From Acidobacteriaceae bacterium (GTDB lineage Bacteria; Acidobacteriota; Terriglobia; Terriglobales; Acidobacteriaceae), in assembly GCA_003134435.1 (NCBI GenBank), contig PLBE01000251.1, forward strand, positions 1-34,994: a stretch of DNA of 34,994 bases. Reading direction: 5' to 3'. Shown in pieces: positions 455 to 7,967 of this stretch. The notes beneath the pieces were generated by a model. It was given only the letters and a program-made list of their open reading frames with translations, was not told where the DNA came from and did no database searches. Both the position numbers and the translations under genes were made by a program. Within the stretch, counting starts at the first letter, position 1. Each line of letters opens with the position of its first letter.

Positions 455-1590
455 CCGCGCTCCACCTTGCCATCGTGATCCGCGCGAGCGAGATCTGACC
501 GGGCGAGCGTAGCCATCCGAATCTCTTCTCCGAACTCCCAGAGCCGACGCGTCAGCTTTTCGGTCTTCGTCTGGGTTGGCGCTGATTGTCGCGAATGGCG
601 CTGCAAGGTCAGAAGTTTCTGTCTGAGCTTCTGTACTCTGGACGCCGCTTCCGCGGCCCGTTTGGCAAACTTCCGATCCTTCTCGCTTTCGGCCACCAGT
701 GCTTCGTAGGCGCGGAGGATTGCTTCTTCCTTATGACAGATCAGCGCCAAATCGCCACCCGCGCGGATATGCTGCACGGCCGTCTGTTCGATAGTAGCGA
801 ATTCCGCGACCGCTCCCATCTCCAGATCGTCGGAGACGATCAGCCCGCCGTAACGAATCCTCTTCCGCAGAATATCGCTAATCCATTTCTTCGATAACGA
901 AGCCGGCGTTCGTTCCACCGTTACTTGCGGATAGGCTGCGTGCGAGACCATGACAAACGGCAGTTGATGACGCAGGGTCCGGTATGGGAGCAGGTCCTCG
1001 ACCAGCATTTTCTTAAGCGGCTTCTCAATGACGGGCAGATCCTGATGGCTGTCGAGTTTGCCCTCGCCCAGTCCCGGGAAGTGCTTGCCGCAGCCGAGTA
1101 CTCGCGCCTCGCGCAATCCCGAAAGAAATTCGCGCGCGTAGATGACTACCTGCTTCGGATCGTCCGAAACCGCCCGCGAATTCAGCACCGGACGCGAAGC
1201 CTCAAAGGCCAAGTCGAGCACCGGGGCAAAATCCACGTTGAAGCCAAGCGTGCGGCAGTTCTCGCCAATCACGCGTCCATGCCTGCGATAAAGCGCCCGG
1301 CTGCCCGTGGCAAACACCTCTGCCGCGGAAGGTGCCGCGCCGATCACGTTGCGGAAACGATCGACTGTGCCGCCTTCAAGGTCCACGCAAGTGAAAAGCG
1401 GCGTGGCCACGTACTTCTGGCATTCGCGCAGAAGAGTGTGCGTCTGCTCAGCTCCAGTGATGTTGCGCGCAAACAGAATCACCCCCGCCGGCTGAACTTT
1501 CGTGAGCAGGGAAGCGAGACGCGGAGACATCTTGGTCCCGTCGAAGCCGATGATGAGGAGTTGGCCGATGTGCGGTTTCAAATCACGCAT
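451..1590 (-). CDS. nagZ: Beta-N-acetylhexosaminidase NagZ (glycoside hydrolase family 3)
   Basis: NagZ removes N-acetylglucosamine from GlcNAc-1,6-anhydroMurNAc peptides in the cytoplasm during cell-wall recycling. From the ATG at 1590 the product is 379 aa. Visible GH3/NagZ motifs are FTCVDLEGGTVDRF near residue 70, KHFPGLGEGKLDSHQDLP at 169-186 with the Asp-His general acid/base loop, and VSDDLEMGA with the expected nucleophile Asp254. A TTG start at 1629 in the same frame would add 13 residues, overlap the upstream gene's stop (TTGA) and has an AAGG-type ribosome site. I prefer the ATG because MRDLKPHIGQLLIIGFDG matches the usual family start. The 3' end overlaps anmK by four bases. No signal peptide is seen, as expected for a cytosolic enzyme. 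A C-terminal tail of about 60 residues beyond the barrel is basic and poorly conserved in appearance. Confidence 0.93.
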   Translation of the reverse strand: MRDLKPHIGQLLIIGFDGTKMSPRLASLLTKVQPAGVILFARNITGAEQTHTLLRECQKYVATPLFTCVDLEGGTVDRFRNVIGAAPSAAEVFATGSRALYRRHGRVIGENCRTLGFNVDFAPVLDLAFEASRPVLNSRAVSDDPKQVVIYAREFLSGLREARVLGCGKHFPGLGEGKLDSHQDLPVIEKPLKKMLVEDLLPYRTLRHQLPFVMVSHAAYPQVTVERTPASLSKKWISDILRKRIRYGGLIVSDDLEMGAVAEFATIEQTAVQHIRAGGDLALICHKEEAILRAYEALVAESEKDRKFAKRAAEAASRVQKLRQKLLTLQRHSRQSAPTQTKTEKLTRRLWEFGEEIRMATLARSDLARADHDGKVERG

Positions 1591-1625
1591 TCTTATATCT
1601 GACTTAGCAGCCTGCCTAAAAAACT

Positions 1626-2396
1626 TCAATCACCACCCTTAGCGATTGAAGGCGCGTTCGGGACGGTGCTCGTCGCCCACACCTCGTCCGCCTGTTCTTT
1701 CGCGGTATCAATGAACCACTGATATGTTTGGTTGTACTCATTGGGCTTGGGTACGCCTAGCACAAGCATTTGCTGCCACACTGCAAACCAAACCTTCGAC
1801 TCAAATGTGAAACGAGCAATCTCCTGCTCAAGGGTGTTCGCTAAACAACCGAGTCCAGTGAAGCCAGTGGGGAAGCCTAAGAGTTTTTCGTTTTCTATTG
1901 TCCGAGAATCAGGGGTCAGTAAAATCTTTCGTATGTACTCTAAGTTAATCGTATAGGCGTTGCCGTTCAAAACGTCGCGGTTAGAATAAAACTTCTGGAA
2001 CAACTCAAAGGTCTTCTCTTTGGTGAAGTCTTTGTAGTACTTGCTGAGGTATTCCAGCAATGTGACGTATTCCAATCCCGTGGTTATCGTCACCAGAACA
2101 AACCCTGAAAACATGAGCAATGCACTTTCGCGCGACCTGGCCGGAGGCATTGTTTGTGATTGCTTAAAAAGTGACTCGATGAGCGACACGGTGCGTGTTT
2201 CGTAGTCGTGCAAGCCCCCGTCTTTTGCCAATCCCGCTAACCAAGGATTGGTTTTTACGCTATCTTGAATCAAGCGAGCCACTTCGGGCTTCATATCGAA
2301 AGGGATTGGTTTAGGCTGACCCGGTTCGCCTATATCGTTCGCAGCCCTTTTATTTCTAAAGACAATTTCCGCTACAGTCTTTCCGAAGATTTTCAT
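1626..2396 (-). CDS. Hypothetical protein, 256 aa, accessory-looking
   Basis: I do not recognise a family. The reading frame is well supported: the ATG is preceded by AAGGAGG at good spacing, and the stop abuts nagZ. The protein starts MKIFGKTVAEIVF and has a hydrophobic stretch around residues 91-107 (SALLMFSGFVLVTITTG) that may be a membrane segment or a buried helix. The second half is rich in aromatic and charged residues. The DNA is visibly more AT-rich than nagZ and mutS on either side. It lies 73 nt downstream of the zinc-knuckle gene on the same strand, so the two are probably co-transcribed. Both sit between mutS and nagZ together with a toxin-antitoxin pair, so they are likely part of an acquired block. 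Function is unknown. Confidence 0.75.
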   Translation of the reverse strand: MKIFGKTVAEIVFRNKRAANDIGEPGQPKPIPFDMKPEVARLIQDSVKTNPWLAGLAKDGGLHDYETRTVSLIESLFKQSQTMPPARSRESALLMFSGFVLVTITTGLEYVTLLEYLSKYYKDFTKEKTFELFQKFYSNRDVLNGNAYTINLEYIRKILLTPDSRTIENEKLLGFPTGFTGLGCLANTLEQEIARFTFESKVWFAVWQQMLVLGVPKPNEYNQTYQWFIDTAKEQADEVWATSTVPNAPSIAKGGD

Positions 2397-2469
2397 AGGG
2401 CCTCCTTATTAGCACCCGGCTCTTGTGGGTGATTCGACGACTTGCAACCACCTTCACAAAGCGCTTTCC

Positions 2470-3273
2470 TCATGTGTTCTTTACCCTGTTTAGATATTTC
2501 ACGACGTTCGCAGCGCGGTACGCCTTCGCGGTTGACTCTTGAATCACGCTCTTGATGCTTCCCGAAATCCCGTCCGAGACCACTATCGGGTGCAGGGGGT
2601 GTGAGGCGAAGCAGGTTTGCTTCAGACCCGAGGGAATCATATTTCCGACTAGCAGAGCGAACTCAATTCCCGGGACGAAGAACAGAAAGTTGTGATAGCC
2701 GGATGCGGACCCTCGGTATGGATAACAGAAGCCGATCGTCTTTACCGCAGGGGGTATAATCCCTACGATCAATGCCATTGTTGCCGGGAATAAAGCCTCC
2801 CCGCGGAGAAAAGCACGTGCCGATTCCCCGTACTTGCCAAACTGGATGAGCGGCTCAGTTTCGCCGCCCCTCCATGAATGAACCGACGCTTTCCAAAACA
2901 CTCCCATCGCGAAATGAGTGAGCTTGGCGACGTCAATCTTGGCATTTTTTGATGCCGCATACACTTTCGAGTCGCCATCGCTGCCCCCGAGCGTGCCCTC
3001 CAGCAAAAGGTCATGGAAAGGAAATGTCCCTTCGGCTGTTGCGAGCAGCGGTAAAACCCAGCTCTCGCCTTCACGACTCAGTATGCCGCCGTCACACTCC
3101 TTGCAGAGAAGCGGATGTTGGAGTTGTCTGCCGGATTGCATAATGACTTTGCTAGATATGGAAATGGGATCATCATTGGGTGTCCGACAGAAATCATGGA
3201 CTCCCCGAGCCATAAGATGGCTATTGATGAGAGGCTTTTCTAATAGACAGAGCTTACAGATGCCGAGTTGCAT
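2470..3273 (-). CDS. Hypothetical protein with HNH-like zinc-knuckle cysteines, 267 aa
   Basis: The N-terminus contains C6-x2-C9, a Ser-His pair at 18-19 and C57-x2-C60-D61 (LLCKECDGGILSREGE). This is the pattern of treble-clef/HNH-type zinc-binding proteins often annotated as HNH endonuclease-like hypotheticals. I cannot assign a catalytic His-Asn-His set with confidence, so nuclease activity is not claimed. The remaining 200 residues show no motif I recognise; a hydrophobic patch near residues 160-185 is probably a folded core. The start is ATG at 3273 with only a weak GGTAAGA-type ribosome site. Base composition is lower in GC than the neighbours. It is encoded with the 256-aa protein downstream. 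Context next to a toxin-antitoxin pair and a duplicated mutS end suggests acquired DNA, with defence or selfish roles possible but unproven. Confidence 0.75.
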   Translation of the reverse strand: MQLGICKLCLLEKPLINSHLMARGVHDFCRTPNDDPISISSKVIMQSGRQLQHPLLCKECDGGILSREGESWVLPLLATAEGTFPFHDLLLEGTLGGSDGDSKVYAASKNAKIDVAKLTHFAMGVFWKASVHSWRGGETEPLIQFGKYGESARAFLRGEALFPATMALIVGIIPPAVKTIGFCYPYRGSASGYHNFLFFVPGIEFALLVGNMIPSGLKQTCFASHPLHPIVVSDGISGSIKSVIQESTAKAYRAANVVKYLNRVKNT

Positions 3274-3392
3274 GATCTTACCGCCAGCTATAGACCTGAC
3301 CTCAATTGTACAGGCCTGAAACTCGGGGACAGACGGGCTATTTTCTGTTGCCTGCGCTTATGGCGATCCGCCTGACCTTTTCGTCACACTGC

Positions 3393-3497
3393 GCGTCTCG
3401 GCGGTTAGATTTCTTTCTTCAGTTCCGCCAGCAAGTTTAGCGCTTCGAGCGGCGTCAGACGGTTCAAATCTACTTCGCGCAGCTTTTCCAGCACGGG
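3393..3497 (-). pseudogene. Duplicated 3' end of mutS (last 30 codons plus 12 bp)
   Basis: This stretch matches the true mutS end at 4080-4184. The first 29 bases (3393-3421) are identical, covering 12 bp past the stop, the TAA and the last codons. Over the following coding part there are 12 substitutions across 30 codons, and every one is silent: both copies encode [20 protein letters not shown] followed by [10 protein letters not shown] and stop. The fragment has no start or upstream mutS sequence. It begins about 14 nt past the toxin stop codon, and the in-frame residues just upstream (LTSTAR) only loosely resemble the mutS linker. It is best read as a remnant or attachment-site copy of a related mutS gene rather than an expressed gene. 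Confidence 0.85.
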
Positions 3498-3511
3498 CCG
3501 GGCCGTCGAGG

Positions 3512-3787
3512 TCAAGGCCAGTCTTGCGCGCCGTGGTAGATGCGCAAAATCTCCAGGTCTTGATCTTGAATGCGATAGACAACGATGTAAGGCAATCCAG
3601 CGAAGACCAGTTCCCGTGTGCCTTCAATCCGCCCCTTGCGGCCGCGACGAGGAAAGTCTCCCAGCTTGTCACAACCAGTGTAGAGAGTCTGTGCCACCTT
3701 GGCGGCGGCGTTAGGATTGTCTTGCTGAATGTGGCTAACAATATTGCAGAAATCTTGCGTGGCGGGAGTGGTCCAGCGCAGGCGCAT
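3512..3787 (-). CDS. ParE/RelE-family toxin of a type II toxin-antitoxin system
   Basis: The 91-aa product starts MRLRWTTPATQDFCNIVSHI and ends with the family's diagnostic block: FPRRGRKGRIEGTRELVF, LPYIVVYRI and LEILRIYHGAQDWP. This matches the ParE/RelE plasmid-stabilisation fold, whose members poison gyrase or cleave mRNA on the ribosome; sequence alone favours the ParE side. I chose the ATG at 3787 because it overlaps the antitoxin stop as TAATG, the usual translationally coupled arrangement. The longer 102-aa version starts inside the antitoxin and is unlikely. The stop codon lies about 14 nt from the duplicated mutS end. The module sits between two mutS 3' ends. Confidence 0.88.
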   Translation of the reverse strand: MRLRWTTPATQDFCNIVSHIQQDNPNAAAKVAQTLYTGCDKLGDFPRRGRKGRIEGTRELVFAGLPYIVVYRIQDQDLEILRIYHGAQDWP

Positions 3788-4011
3788 TATGGCCGCAGAA
3801 TCTGCTGAATCTTGGCCCAAACTTCACCGTGCTCCACAAATTCTCCGCGATCCGCAGCCGCCAGCCCAAGGTTCACGGCTTCGATGAAGTGGCTGTCGTC
3901 CTCCAGGTAGCGGCTTAAGACCTGCTGGGCCAGTTCGTCGGTTTTCAGCCCGCGCTGTGCCGCGATTTGTGCAAGCTGGGCTTCCTTCTCAGGCTGAAGA
4001 CGTATTTCCAT
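3787..4011 (-). CDS. Antitoxin partner of the ParE-like toxin
   Basis: A 74-aa protein immediately upstream of, and overlapping by one base with, the toxin. The N-terminal part MEIRLQPEKEAQLAQIAAQ followed by RGLKTDELAQQVLSRYL looks like a ribbon-helix-helix DNA-binding antitoxin: one short strand, then two helices. The C-terminal part, with GEFVEHGEVWAKIQQIL, would be the toxin-binding segment. A GTG at 4017 is an alternative start two codons earlier. I prefer the ATG at 4011 because the promoter just upstream places the predicted transcription start on it. Antitoxins of this class usually repress their own promoter; the sequence shows a promoter directly abutting the gene but I did not find a clear operator palindrome. 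Confidence 0.85.
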   Translation of the reverse strand: MEIRLQPEKEAQLAQIAAQRGLKTDELAQQVLSRYLEDDSHFIEAVNLGLAAADRGEFVEHGEVWAKIQQILRP

Positions 4012-4017
4012 GGTCAC

Positions 4018-4046
4018 AGTCTACGAAGGTTTGCGAGTGCTGTCAA
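4018..4046 (-). promoter_or_regulatory. Sigma-70-type promoter of the toxin-antitoxin operon, probably leaderless
   Basis: On the minus strand a perfect -35 box TTGACA (4046-4041) is followed by a 17-bp spacer and -10 box TAGACT (4023-4018). Six bases after the -10 box falls the A of the antitoxin ATG at 4011. The predicted transcript therefore begins on the start codon, with no room for a ribosome-binding site. Confidence 0.65.
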
Positions 4047-4079
4047 CACGGCGATTTAATCGCATTTTCCGGCGCGTTT

Positions 4080-4184
4080 GCGTCTCGGCGGTTAGATTTC
4101 TTTCTTCAACTCTGCTAGCAAGTTTAGCGCTTCCAGCGGCGTCAGCCGGTTCAAATCCACCTCGCGTAACTTCTCCAGCACCGG
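4080..4184 (-). repeat. mutS 3' end, right copy of the 105-bp direct repeat
   Basis: This is the genuine end of mutS plus 12 bp of downstream DNA, repeated in direct orientation at 3393-3497 with an offset of 687 bp. The unit enclosed (one repeat plus the toxin-antitoxin pair) is thus 687 bp long. The two copies are identical for 29 bp around the stop codon and about 89% identical overall. Confidence 0.85.
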
Positions 4185-6815
4185 TTGCGACAGCGGCGTG
4201 AAGATGGTCAACTGCGTCGGACGCTCGGGTTCTGCTCCTGGCGTCAGATGGCTCGAGAGGCGGCGCTCGGACGATTCGTGCTCGGCCAGCACTTCGCGCG
4301 CGCGCACTACTACTTCGTTTGGCAATCCCGCCAGCTTGGCAACTTCGATGCCGTAGCTGCGGTCGGCTGCTCCTGGTTCGACCCGGCGCAGAAAGACTAC
4401 GCTTCCGCCGGTTTCCTTGACGGACACGTGATAGTTCTTCACGCCGGCCAATTGCTCAGCAAGTTCAGTCAGCTCGAAATAGTGTGTGGCAAACAAAGTC
4501 TTGGCGTGCACTCGCGCGTGCAGATATTCGACGGCCGCCCATGCGATCGCCAGTCCGTCATAAGTGGACGTGCCGCGCCCGACCTCATCCAGCAGAATCA
4601 GCGACCGCGCCGTTGCCGTATGCAGAATCGCCGCCGTCTCCGTCATCTCGACCATGAACGTCGAGCGCCCCCGAGCCACGTTGTCGCTGGCGCCAATGCG
4701 CGTGAAGACGCGATCCACAATGCCCAGCCGCACAGCACGCGCCGGAACAAACGAGCCCATCTGCGCCATGATCACGATCAGGGCAGCCTGCCGCAGATAG
4801 GTGCTCTTGCCGCCCATGTTCGGTCCCGTCAGCACTACGATGTTGTGCGTCGAGGCATTCAGGAAGAGATCGTTGGGAACAAAACGCTCGCTCCCCGCCG
4901 CCAGTTCCTGTAGTTCGATTACAGGATGGCGGCCTTCGACAATCTCCAGATCAGCGAAGTCCGCAGTCTTCTCAGCTTCGTCAAAAGTCCGCTCAAACTT
5001 CGGCCGGCAGTAATGCCGCAGGGCCGCGATGTGTGCCAGGCAACCGAGCGCATCCACTTCCGCCAGGGCCAGCGCGGTTTGCCGGATGCGCTTCGCTTCG
5101 GCGGCAATCGCAGAACGCAACTCGGCAAACAGCCGCCGCTCGATTTCGACGATCTTCTCCTGGGCATCGAGAATCTTCGACTCATACTCCTTCAATTCCG
5201 GAGTCGTAAAACGCTCGGCATTCACCAGCGTTTGTTTGCGTTCGTAATCGGTCGGCGCGTGCTGCAGATTCGCCTTCGAAATCTCGATGTAGTAACCAAA
5301 GATGGAATTGAACTTCACCTTCAGCGAGCCAATCCCGGTGCGTTCGCGCTCGCGGGTCTCCACTTGCGCCAGATATTGCTTTGAGTTGCGGCTCAGGTCG
5401 CGGAGTTCGTCGAGATCTTTATCGATACCTGGAGCGATCACCCCTCCATCGCTCAGCGTTAACGGCGGTTCGGAAACCAGCGTGATATCGATGTTCTCGC
5501 GCAGATCGCCAAGCTCGTCGATCGCCATATGGAGCACGGATAGCCGCGAAGCGGCCGCTTGCTGCTCGGATAACCCGGCTAACACCGCTCGAACATGCGG
5601 AAGTTTTGCGAGTGACGCTGCCAGGGCCAACACATCGCGTGGATTTGCCGTCTCTAGCGTGACCCGGCTGAGCAGGCGTTCGAGATCCAGAATGCCATCG
5701 AGCGCACGCCGCAACTCTTCGCGGCGAACTGTGTCCTTGACCTGAATTTCAACCGCATCCAGACGGCCTTCGATCTCGGCCCGATCTAATGTAGGGCGCA
5801 GGATCCACATGCGGAGCAAACGCTTGCCCATGGGCGTGACCGTGGCATCGAGGCAGCGGAATAGCGTGACTCCGTGTTCCGTGCCTGAGAAGAGCGGTTC
5901 GATTAACTCGAGGTTGCGTACGGTCACCGCGTCCAGCACGAGGCAGTTCTGGCGCTCGTAGAAGCCGATGCGGTCGACGTGATCGAGTGTGCCCCGCTGC
6001 GTCGACCGGATGTAATACAAAATTGCGCCCGCCGCCGAGGCCGCCGCCTGCTTACCCGCCAATCCGAAGCCCTCGAGCGACAGCACACCGAAATGATTTT
6101 CCAGGAGCGGGATGGCGTGGTCGGGAGCGAAGATCCAGTCGTCCAACGGAGTCTCCGCCCATCCAGAACTGGAGATGCGAGCGACCGGAGCCGTGCTGGC
6201 GGAAGCGTTGGCTTGCGCACGTGGATGGGTCAGGGTGGCTGTCTCTCTTTCGTGCCTCCTTTCGAGCAGTGGAGCAGAAGAACCGTACAACATCTCTCTT
6301 GGCCGCAATTGCTCAAGTTCCTCTTGAATGCGGCGTCCCGCCTGCTCCCCCGCGAACTCCGTGGCTCGAAACTCCCCCGTCGACAGATCGAGCGCGGCGA
6401 AACCTACGTGATCTCCAACCGTTGCTACCGCTGCCAGGAAGTTGTTTTCCTCCGGGTTCAAGGACGAATCCGCCGCCGTGCCCGGCGTCACCACGCGGGT
6501 CACCTCGCGCTTCACCAATTTCTTCGCCAGACGGGGATCTTCCACCTGCTCGCAGACCGCGACCTTGAAGCCGCGCCGAATCAGCTTGGCGATGTAGCCT
6601 TCGGCGGCGTGGTAGGGCACTCCACACATGGGGATGGCCATACCCTTTTCTTTATTGCGCGAGGTCAGCGTGATTTGGAGTTCGCGCGCCGCCAAAACCG
6701 CGTCGTCGAAGAAAAGTTCATAGAAATCCCCCAAACGAAAAAACAGGAGAGCGTTTGGATGTTCCTTCTTCACAGCGGCGTATTGGCGCATCAGCGGCGT
6801 TGAGGGTTCCGACAT
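4092..6815 (-). CDS. mutS: DNA mismatch repair protein MutS
   Basis: MutS binds mismatches and small loops and, with MutL, starts strand-directed repair. The product is 907 aa, slightly longer than the usual 850-880. The mismatch-reading motif GDFYELF is at residues 29-35 with the expected Phe31-x-Glu33. The ATPase has Walker [10 protein letters not shown] at 664-672, Walker [17 protein letters not shown] with Asp743, and the [10 protein letters not shown] block shortly after. The C-terminal [18 protein letters not shown] is the conserved MutS tail. The open frame continues upstream to 7652, but that part is antisense to galT; the ATG at 6815 gives the proper family start [12 protein letters not shown]. 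No strong ribosome site precedes it. Its 3' end is duplicated 687 bp downstream, past a toxin-antitoxin pair. Confidence 0.97.
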
Positions 6816-6870
6816 ATAGGGACTTGGTAGTTGTTTAATCTCTACTCCTTGTAATTTGCAAGCTCGTGTT

Positions 6871-6906
6871 TCGGAAAACCAGTTTACCTGCCGGGAAGTT
6901 TTCCGA
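6871..6906. promoter_or_regulatory. Inverted repeat in the mutS/galT divergent promoter region
   Basis: TCGGAAAAC at 6871-6879 is the exact reverse complement of GTTTTCCGA at 6898-6906, separated by 18 bp, inside the AT-rich 165-bp region between the divergent mutS and galT genes. It could be an operator for a dimeric regulator or a hairpin in the mutS leader. No confident -35/-10 pair was found on either strand. Confidence 0.4.
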
Positions 6907-6980
6907 TAGTAAAATTTCAAAATTACCAAATTACTAATTCTCCATTTGACTCCCTCCCGCGGTTTTGTTCTCCTTACGCC

Positions 6981-7967
6981 ATGGAACTTCGCAAAGATCC
7001 CATCACTCGATCCTGGGTGATCACTGGCGACGATGTCATCGAGCCCGTTCCACAACCTCAAGCGTGTCGATTTTGCGGACCGTCGGCCTTGCCCGTCCAG
7101 GTGATCGCCAACCTGCCGGGTGTGGATGGCAGCGCATGGTCGGCGCGGTCCGTCGTCCACCCCCATGCTCTTTACCACGTCGAAGGCGAGGCCGCGCGCC
7201 GCGGTGACGGCCTTTACGACCGCATGGGATCGGTCGGAGCCCATGAAGTTTTGCTCGAAAATCCACGTCACGACGCTCAGATGTGGACTGCAAGCGATGT
7301 CGAAGTCGAACAGTTCCTGCGTCTGGCTGCGCTTCGCCTGCAGGATTTGAAGCGCGACAGCCGCTTCAAGTACATCAGCATTTTTAAGAATCATGGTGCC
7401 GGTGCCGGGCAGGAATTCGAGCACCCCACTTCCCAGTTGACCGCCACCACATTTGTGCCGCGGCGAGTGCTCTACGAACTGCGCGCCGGCCGCGAATATT
7501 TTGAAAGTAAAGAGCGCTGCGTCTTCTGCGACATTCTCGCGCAGGAGGAGCGGCAGAATCTGCGCATTGTCGAAGTTCGAGGAGACTATGTGGCCTTCTG
7601 CCCGTATGCTCCGCGCACCCCATATGAAACCTGGATCATGCCCCGCAGCCATGAATCCTCCTTCGAACGCACCGGCTCATCGCGCGTGGGCACGGTTACC
7701 GATCTGGCTGCGCTCCTGCGGCGCACGCTACAACGAATCCGCACCGTCACCGAAGCTTTTCACCTCGTGCTGCATACTTCGCCCAACAGCCAGCATCCTT
7801 CGGCAACCCTCGGGTACTGGAAAACCCTCGACGACGACTACCACTGGCACATCGAGATTCTGCCCATCATCGAGGCCAAGGCGAGATCGTACACGTTCAA
7901 GGAGATCTACTATTCTCCGGTGACGTCGGAGACGGCCGTGAAGCGGTTGCGCGAAGCGAAGATCTAA
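6981..7967 (+). CDS. galT: Galactose-1-phosphate uridylyltransferase family protein (GalT-like, altered active site)
   Basis: A 328-aa protein of the GalT branch of the HIT superfamily, which transfers nucleotidyl groups between sugar phosphates. It opens with [14 protein letters not shown], typical of bacterial GalT-like proteins. It carries a CxxC pair at C29/C32 and a second at C180/C183, the usual zinc or structural cysteines. [17 protein letters not shown] at 137-153 aligns with the catalytic NHGAxxGxSxxHPHxQ, but the second His (the covalent nucleophile) is Thr150. The C-terminal YHWHIEILP block is intact. The start codon ATG at 6981 lacks an obvious Shine-Dalgarno site. It is divergent from mutS and followed 80 bp later by a small conserved-looking gene. 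Because of the substitution, classical uridylyltransferase activity should not be assumed. Confidence 0.82.

What the first reader, a model, noticed from the sequence alone, without database searches (positions are those of the whole stretch)
3393..4184. Toxin-antitoxin pair bracketed by two copies of the mutS 3' end
A 105-bp direct repeat made of the last 30 mutS codons and 12 bp of downstream DNA flanks a ParE-like toxin and its antitoxin, giving a 687-bp unit. Because the repeat rebuilds the end of mutS, the gene stays intact after insertion. This is the strategy of elements that integrate into gene 3' ends, but no integrase is present. It could be a tiny mobile cassette moved by homologous recombination or by a recombinase in trans, using a conserved housekeeping gene end as its target.
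Basis: partly seen in the sequence, partly recalled or inferred. Interest (0 to 1): 0.75.

Follow-up and report, generated by a model that had tools for sequence, protein, structure and literature searches.

The report
Toxin-antitoxin pair inside duplicated gene end
A tiny bacterial toxin-antitoxin gene pair sits between two copies of the end of a DNA-repair gene, and some related pairs in other soil bacteria sit between copies of the ends of quite different genes, which suggests that such pairs can settle in chromosomes without a transposase while leaving the neighbouring gene intact.

Summary
Two 105-bp copies (93 of 105 identical, 687 bp apart) of the mutS 3' end flank a RelB-like/ParE pair; the unit holds no integrase.

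mutS is not a dedicated target. Of 300 family genomes searched, 275 matched the mutS tail; only this one has a second tail beside mutS (a genus mate has a shorter one, found separately). The architecture recurs elsewhere: in 140 related ParE loci, 10 have direct repeats tightly bracketing the pair (8 after setting two aside), against 1 of 1041 background positions. Duplicated stretches include ends of recO, dapD, trpA, uppP and a conjugation gene. HicA loci: 4 of 30. PIN and thioredoxin controls: 0 of 29 and 0 of 30. In seven close cassettes the shared part runs only from promoter to toxin stop.

All 12 differences between the mutS copies are synonymous. The outer copy resembles genus mates' mutS; the inner one leans towards another species. 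They most likely diverged as working alleles in different lineages and met by recombination.

Best reading: insertion with long target duplication, known for restriction-modification genes, here for toxin-antitoxin pairs, made by one-sided homologous plus illegitimate recombination. Pattern well supported; mechanism inferred.

The parts
4092..6815 (-). mutS, intact, with the proximal copy of the 105-bp repeat as its 3' end (ORF open to 7652; probable start near 6815)
   Evidence: start inferred from where the MutS models begin
4080..4184 (-). proximal repeat copy: last 30 sense codons of mutS, stop, 12 bp; leans towards the G023 lineage
4047..4079 (-). 33-bp spacer between repeat and promoter, not shared with related cassettes
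4018..4046 (-). promoter-like site TTGACA-17-TAGACT, aligned in the seven closest cassettes (one has TAAACT); ATG 6 nt after the -10 box (a leaderless transcript is inferred)
3787..4011 (-). RelB-like antitoxin, 74 aa from the conserved ATG
3512..3787 (-). ParE-family toxin, 91 aa, start overlaps the antitoxin stop (TAATG)
3498..3511 (-). 14-bp spacer between toxin stop and distal copy (illegitimate junction proposed here)
3393..3497 (-). distal repeat copy: displaced mutS end, 94-97% like mutS of G001, G017 and G010 over the 90 coding nt

Best explanation
A stand-alone unit (promoter, RelB-like antitoxin, ParE toxin; about 535 bp, no mobility gene) reached this mutS on DNA from a related species in which it already lay behind mutS. 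One side recombined by homology inside mutS and brought the donor's mutS tail with the pair. The other side was joined illegitimately, 14 bp behind the toxin stop, to the recipient's own mutS about 30 codons before its end. That replaces a stretch of mutS by donor mutS plus the pair and leaves 105 bp of recipient tail behind, so mutS stays whole. The product is an insertion with long target duplication. Shown: the architecture; its recurrence at other genes and with HicA-type pairs; the limits of the shared unit; the synonymous-only divergence; the native look of the outer copy. Inferred: the direction, the homologous plus illegitimate pair of junctions, the donor's arrangement, and selection for products that keep the neighbouring gene intact.
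For: Tight direct repeats bracket the pair in 10 of 140 testable ParE loci against 1 of 1041 background positions (Fisher 4e-9; 8 of 140 after setting aside L100 and L211, 3e-7; the test treats overlapping background positions and related loci as independent). Shifted windows give 0-3 of 132-139 (the 3 are the same repeats continuing; of three single hits one, L190, is the recO tail, and L174 and L227 were not followed), inverted orientation 1 of 140. HicA: 4 of 30 against 1 of 796 with that geometry. Controls with the wide window: PIN 0 of 29, thioredoxin 0 of 30, ParE 16 of 140. mutS copies: 12 of 12 differences synonymous. Over the coding 90 nt the distal copy is 94-97% to G001/G017/G010, as these are to each other (93-94%); the proximal copy is 88-89% to them and 92% to G023 and G020. 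G023-like variants are 14 of 26 in the last 300 nt of mutS and 19 of 71 further upstream (p 0.013; the split was chosen after seeing the bins), so the foreign tract may begin upstream of the duplication. G135 copies: 6 of 7 differences synonymous. Similarity among the seven closest cassettes begins at the -35 box and ends at the toxin stop. recO-glyQ: glyQ within about 55 nt of recO in 8 of 30 loci, and a HicA-type pair behind the same recO end in another genome.
Against: No donor with mutS followed directly by this pair was found: second mutS-tail matches in 300 family genomes are this genome's own plus separate mutS places in G058 and G299. The foreign-tail signal is modest, and at 12 of 26 such sites in the last 300 nt G000 follows the group consensus, not G023. 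Microhomology at the junction cannot be read without the donor. Published one-sided events generally delete a stretch (PMC3240628 passages). Most ParE loci (130 of 140) show no tight repeat, which age may explain but which is not shown; the six closest cassettes other than this one have no bracketing repeat at E 1e-3. PIN loci show none. For recO (25 bp, no differences), G312 recO (1 difference, not synonymous) and dapD (3 synonymous, 2 not; 8 and 5) a plain duplication followed by decay fits as well.
Confidence: 0.55

Rival explanations
1. A linear donor fragment (mutS tail plus pair) circularised by end joining and entered by one crossover in the mutS tail, leaving the tail on both sides.
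For: Seen in E. coli: 56 of 60 clones gave the PCR product diagnostic for a duplication, and 14 sequenced ones showed 109-950 bp of the homologous segment duplicated, ascribed to single crossover of a circular molecule (PMC3240628 passages). Gives the same architecture.
Against: The distal copy looks native over nearly its whole length, so the crossover would have to fall in its first 10-20 bp, and the foreign look of mutS may start upstream of the repeat. Gene conversion could hide this.
Confidence: 0.2
2. A cut-and-insert event with a long staggered break: both copies come from one target, as in transposition but with a long duplication; later recombination replaced the mutS tail.
For: recO copies in G288 are identical over 25 bp; duplication lengths vary; long, variable target duplications are reported for restriction-modification genes (PMC3031569 and PMC3874152 passages).
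Against: Needs a second event for mutS and for G135, where differences are all or nearly all synonymous; no nuclease or transposase in the unit.
Confidence: 0.13
3. Old local tandem duplication of the mutS end, with the pair arriving in between and the outer copy decaying.
For: Direct repeat beside mutS; dapD copies carry amino-acid changes as decaying copies would.
Against: 12 of 12 synonymous differences have probability about 8e-8 if substitutions were random with respect to coding, 4e-5 if all were transitions, and the outer copy is the one that resembles relatives.
Confidence: 0.04
4. Site-specific integration into the mutS 3' end by an integrase acting in trans.
For: Gene 3' end rebuilt, as with known integrative elements (recalled); unit small and without its own integrase.
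Against: Different genes, 5' ends as well as 3' ends, and variable duplication lengths; nothing shared beyond the promoter-to-stop unit in seven cassettes.
Confidence: 0.03
5. Assembly chimera of two strains in a metagenome bin (contamination estimate 4.42%).
For: The genome is a 261-contig assembly; the two copies look like two species.
Against: No repeat through which to misjoin was found at the toxin/distal-copy junction within 500-7000 (the rest of the genome was not tested for this); the same architecture occurs in other assemblies.
Confidence: 0.05

Closest known systems
Insertion with long target duplication of restriction-modification genes (Nobusato 2000, Furuta 2010; neither held, known here only through PMC3874152 and PMC3031569 passages)
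   Different: Cargo is a type II toxin-antitoxin pair; the mutS copies carry the signature of two species' alleles; the host group is acidobacterial by the titles.
Homology-facilitated illegitimate recombination (PMC3240628 passages; proposed for T6SS effector-immunity modules in PMC5361080 passages)
   Same: One homologous anchor plus one illegitimate junction carries foreign genes in; a displaced native 3' part remains downstream.
   Different: Generally gives a deletion; here the illegitimate end would have fallen inside the anchor gene, giving a duplication.
Genomic islands integrating at gene 3' ends with a tyrosine integrase (recalled, no call)
   Same: Rebuilds the 3' end of the target gene.
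   Different: No integrase in the unit, no fixed target or core.
ParDE/RelBE type II toxin-antitoxin families (PF05016; ParE structures 5cw7 and 5czf)
   Same: Toxin belongs to the ParE/RelE superfamily; overlapping antitoxin gene upstream.
   Different: Antitoxin matches RelB only weakly; activity untested.

Membership tests
Insertion with long target duplication | Insert bounded by direct copies of one target stretch, length variable, tens to over 100 bp | tested here: met
   105 bp at mutS; 25-98 bp at recO, dapD, trpA, uppP and a coupling-protein gene
Insertion with long target duplication | Relatives show the uninterrupted site with one copy | tested here: met
   nagZ estimated within 19 nt of mutS in 3 of 20 genus genomes, G004, G006 and G021; glyQ within about 55 nt of recO in 8 of 30 loci. 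Genus level only, no sister strain; other sites not checked
Insertion with long target duplication | Cargo is a restriction-modification system (as described) | tested here: not met
   Cargo is RelB-like/ParE or HicA-type
Integrase-dependent 3'-end island | Integrase gene in the element | tested here: not met
   687-bp unit holds only the pair
Integrase-dependent 3'-end island | Constant target and constant core | tested here: not met
   Different genes and lengths; second tail beside mutS only in G000 among 275 matching genomes (which would miss short copies such as that of G020)
Integron or dif-module cassette | attC or dif-like recombination sites | not tested
   No dedicated search was made; no similarity outside promoter-to-stop in seven cassettes
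ParE/RelE type II toxin-antitoxin | Toxin family match above curated cut-off | tested here: met
   PF05016 68.7 bits, cut-off 23; TIGR02385 28.5 bits, cut-off 27.9
ParE/RelE type II toxin-antitoxin | Toxicity neutralised by the antitoxin | not testable with these tools
   needs the bench

The most novel reading that the evidence does not exclude
Small type II toxin-antitoxin pairs of several families (RelB-ParE, HicA-HicB) are transposase-free mobile units: a bare promoter-to-stop unit travels on short donor fragments anchored in a neighbouring housekeeping gene, and the illegitimate far end lands inside that same gene. Only products that rebuild the gene survive, so the insertions accumulate at gene ends and leave duplicated, species-mixed gene tails as a datable scar.
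Probability: 0.4. Interest if true: 0.75.

Novelty: new variant of a known kind. Interest (0 to 1): 0.6.

Why it matters
How chromosomal toxin-antitoxin pairs move when no transposon, phage or integron carries them is an open question; a 2009 review calls them highly mobile and says that how acquired systems become fixed is not yet understood (PMC2654758 passages). The duplicated gene tails give a readable scar that tells target, direction, donor lineage and relative age, so the route can be tested genome by genome. If general, it links toxin-antitoxin pairs with restriction-modification genes through a shared way of settling, and explains why housekeeping gene ends such as those of mutS, recO or a nuoG-like gene hold them.

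Tried and rejected
Dispersed repeat: the G+C-rich motif after mutS was searched in the own genome with up to 3 mismatches; 2 matches, control 1, so no repeat family drives this. mutS as a family-wide hotspot: rejected for long tails. Close copies of the pair at other sites (L056-L058, L060-L062): no direct repeat at E 1e-3 within the held 1.5-kb flanks; L059 has one, but both its copies lie on the same side of the pair. So most insertions carry no visible scar. PIN toxins: no sign of the pattern in 29 testable of 30 loci, although a PIN-like ORF lies between the distant copies of L118 and a Phd/PIN-like pair follows the G020 mutS copy (both by eye). Defence models: no PADLOC match for the pair or the two cargo ORFs.

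Rows set aside. One search listed matches in 125 of 300 genomes, its place list cut; I used 90 of the listed places. Of these 90, 3 had short flanks. Of 80 loci, 23 repeated loci already held and 4 of the 57 new ones had short flanks. Of 16 wide hits of 140: L100 repeats the antitoxin's own region, L211 looks like a palindromic dispersed repeat, L063 is at the null level, L225 and L118 are distant repeats. Eleven remain: L055, L071, L109, L115, L121, L127, L129, L130, L137, L149, L190. They are not all independent: L115 and L127 share one dapD site, L130 and L121 the end of one gene kind, L071 and L190 the recO site; L109 and L137 are weak. Two background positions of 1041 also scored in the wide test; a rescan of 21 of the 22 background sequences on both strands points to G020 mutS and one place in G001, the latter not followed. 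Of the four HicA hits L377 is short (27 bp) and L383 may be a shared protein tail rather than a target copy (4 synonymous, 7 other differences).

Papers: Nobusato 2000 and Furuta 2010 were not held. Searches for toxin-antitoxin pairs with target duplication or flanking repeats showed, in listings and in the passages that I opened, none describing this for toxin-antitoxin pairs, apart from one mycoplasma paper noting direct repeats at a pair as recombination scars (PMC8562856 passages). PMC4615327 and PMC3784515 were seen in passages, PMC1891008 in its reference list only. Most subscription papers are not in that library.

Full report
What is there. On the minus strand mutS ends at 4092. Behind it follow a 33-bp spacer (from the repeat's end at 4080), a promoter-like site TTGACA-17-TAGACT (4046-4018; the only promoter-like site in 3300-4250, expected 0.3), a RelB-like antitoxin (4011-3787), a ParE toxin (3787-3512), 14 bp, and a second copy of the last 30 sense codons of mutS with stop and 12 bp (3497-3393). 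The copies are 93 of 105 identical and 687 bp apart. They are the only two matches in the assembly at E<=0.001. Downstream lie two ORFs without Pfam, NCBIfam or PADLOC match and then nagZ.

The copies come from two lineages. All 12 differences between them are synonymous, and the 90 coding nt encode the same 30 residues. If substitutions were random with respect to the code this has probability about 8e-8, or 4e-5 if all were transitions; if a share of them arose in a functional copy, so that 60% synonymous is expected (my estimate), it is 0.002. Over the coding 90 nt the outer copy is 94, 96 and 97% identical to mutS of genus mates G001, G017 and G010, which are 93-94% to each other there, but 87% to its own neighbour; the copy inside mutS is 88-89% to those three and 92% to G020 and G023. 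This tail is more conserved than the rest of mutS, where G000 is 85-87% to the same three. At sites where G023 differs from the group consensus, this genome follows G023 at 14 of 26 in the last 300 nt of mutS and 19 of 71 upstream (p 0.013; split chosen after seeing the bins). So the outer copy is best read as the native end, pushed out, and the tail now in use as an import. The last point is moderate evidence only.

It is not about mutS. Of 20 genus members with a readable mutS end, only this one and G020 hold a long second tail; G020 has 64 bp, 97%, 537 nt behind mutS, with an unassigned stretch between and a Phd/PIN-like pair after it (assigned by eye; in a few of the 20 the contig ends within 2-4 kb). 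A search of 300 family genomes with the last 47 residues of mutS found matches in 275; second matches were this genome's outer copy and separate mutS places in G058 (open frame of 188 aa) and G299 (two frames of 1011 aa, 460 kb apart). Short copies such as that of G020 would be missed. The space between mutS and nagZ holds different genes in most genus members, and mutS and nagZ nearly touch in 3 of 20, G004, G006 and G021.

The architecture recurs. I took 90 of the places listed for related ParE toxins (125 of 300 genomes matched, place list cut; stretches) and, of 80 loci from a public genome collection, the 57 that were new. In 140 testable loci I compared the 200 nt lying 450 to 250 nt before the toxin start, just upstream of the antitoxin, with the 100 nt after the toxin. 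Ten reach the threshold of 16, against 1 of 1041 positions in 22 background sequences, mostly around mutS. Windows shifted away give 0-3 of 132-139, the three being continuations of the same repeats, and the inverted orientation gives 1 of 140. With wider windows it is 16 of 140 against 2 of 1041; five of the 16 are set aside as stated under Tried and rejected. The duplicated stretches include gene ends: recO 3' end (25 bp, identical), dapD 3' end in two genus mates, trpA 5' end, uppP 3' end in opposite orientation, and the 3' end of a type IV coupling protein gene. In these five kinds the neighbouring gene keeps one whole end, upstream or downstream.

Other toxin-antitoxin families. In 30 HicA loci 4 show bracketing repeats against 1 of 796 background positions with the same geometry, and that one lies at the G020 mutS copy. 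Two of the four sit at the 5' end of the same gene, which I name nuoG-like from memory of its sequence, in two genera; one sits at a gene 3' end with stop codon; the fourth is uncertain. In the genus of G288, 30 recO loci were held of 36 matching genomes of 40; glyQ lies within about 55 nt of recO in 8 of 30. RelB-ParE with a recO-tail copy occurs in G288, G312 and the record of L190, where a HicA-HicB pair (PF07927, PF15919) has joined it. G330 has a HicA toxin with a HicB-like partner (by eye; Pfam matches below cut-off) between recO and a 33-bp recO-tail copy. PIN loci (0 of 29) and thioredoxin loci (0 of 30) show nothing at this threshold; against the ParE rate this is only p about 0.04 each.

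The unit. Aligning the seven closest cassettes, one with a stop inside the toxin and one frame-shifted, similarity begins at the -35 box and stops at the toxin stop codon; flanks are unrelated except that two, from one genus, share their upstream gene. The ATG lies 6 nt behind the -10 box, so the message is probably leaderless (inference). Apart from this one, none of the seven is bracketed by a repeat at E 1e-3.

Mechanism. The simplest account for mutS is one homologous crossover inside mutS and one illegitimate junction on the far side that landed in the recipient's own mutS tail. This is homology-facilitated illegitimate recombination with its end inside the anchor gene. Published cases generally delete (PMC3240628 passages), but the same paper reports duplications of 109-950 bp of the homologous segment through circular molecules and a single crossover, which is my first rival. 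Selection for an intact neighbour gene would then explain why insertions are seen at gene ends. Addiction by the pair may add retention; that is not tested here.

Known and new. Long, variable target duplications were described for restriction-modification genes (PMC3031569 and PMC3874152 passages; originals not held). I found no description for toxin-antitoxin pairs in the searches named under Tried and rejected. I therefore call this a new variant of a known kind.

Limits. By their titles 76 of 80 named related loci are metagenome assemblies; loci within a genus are not independent and background positions overlap; no donor was found; the threshold of 16 is the 99.7% level of mismatched pairs of the same loci. 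The window's genus is taken to be acidobacterial from the titles of the nearest loci (Acidobacteriaceae, Terriglobia); the window's own record is unnamed.

Noticed in passing
window 1626-3273: Two ORFs (267 aa, with cysteine and histidine pairs suggesting a zinc or HNH-like fold by eye, and 256 aa) between the outer mutS copy and nagZ; no Pfam, NCBIfam or PADLOC match; no match in the genus mates' mutS loci with 1.5-kb flanks.
   Followed up: partly
L033-L051, mutS to nagZ: The mutS-nagZ space carries different cargo in most genus members (TPR-like, DMT-like, Clp-N-like and membrane proteins by eye), a small variable hotspot.
   Followed up: partly
L376, L377: HicA-HicB pairs inserted between two genes that look like nuoF and nuoG (recalled names), with the start of the second gene duplicated, in two different genera.
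   Followed up: partly
L243: Behind recO a RelB-like antitoxin without its toxin is followed directly by a HicB-like gene, as if one pair had been replaced by part of another (by eye).
   Followed up: no
window 4095-4150 and orthologues: The codons GCGCTAAACTTGCT near the mutS end look unusually conserved at synonymous positions across much of the genus (by eye).
   Followed up: no
L050 (G022): The mutS gene of G022 carries an apparent in-frame insertion shortly before its 3' end (query split at residues 157-158 with one open frame).
   Followed up: no
L043 (G020): A 577-nt stretch without a convincing gene separates mutS from the end of a 64-bp copy of its tail region; a Phd/PIN-like pair and a weak further fragment resembling the mutS downstream element follow.
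   Followed up: partly
L174, L227, L225 and G001 near mutS (L033): Direct repeats that scored in shifted or distant windows or in the background and were not explained.
   Followed up: no
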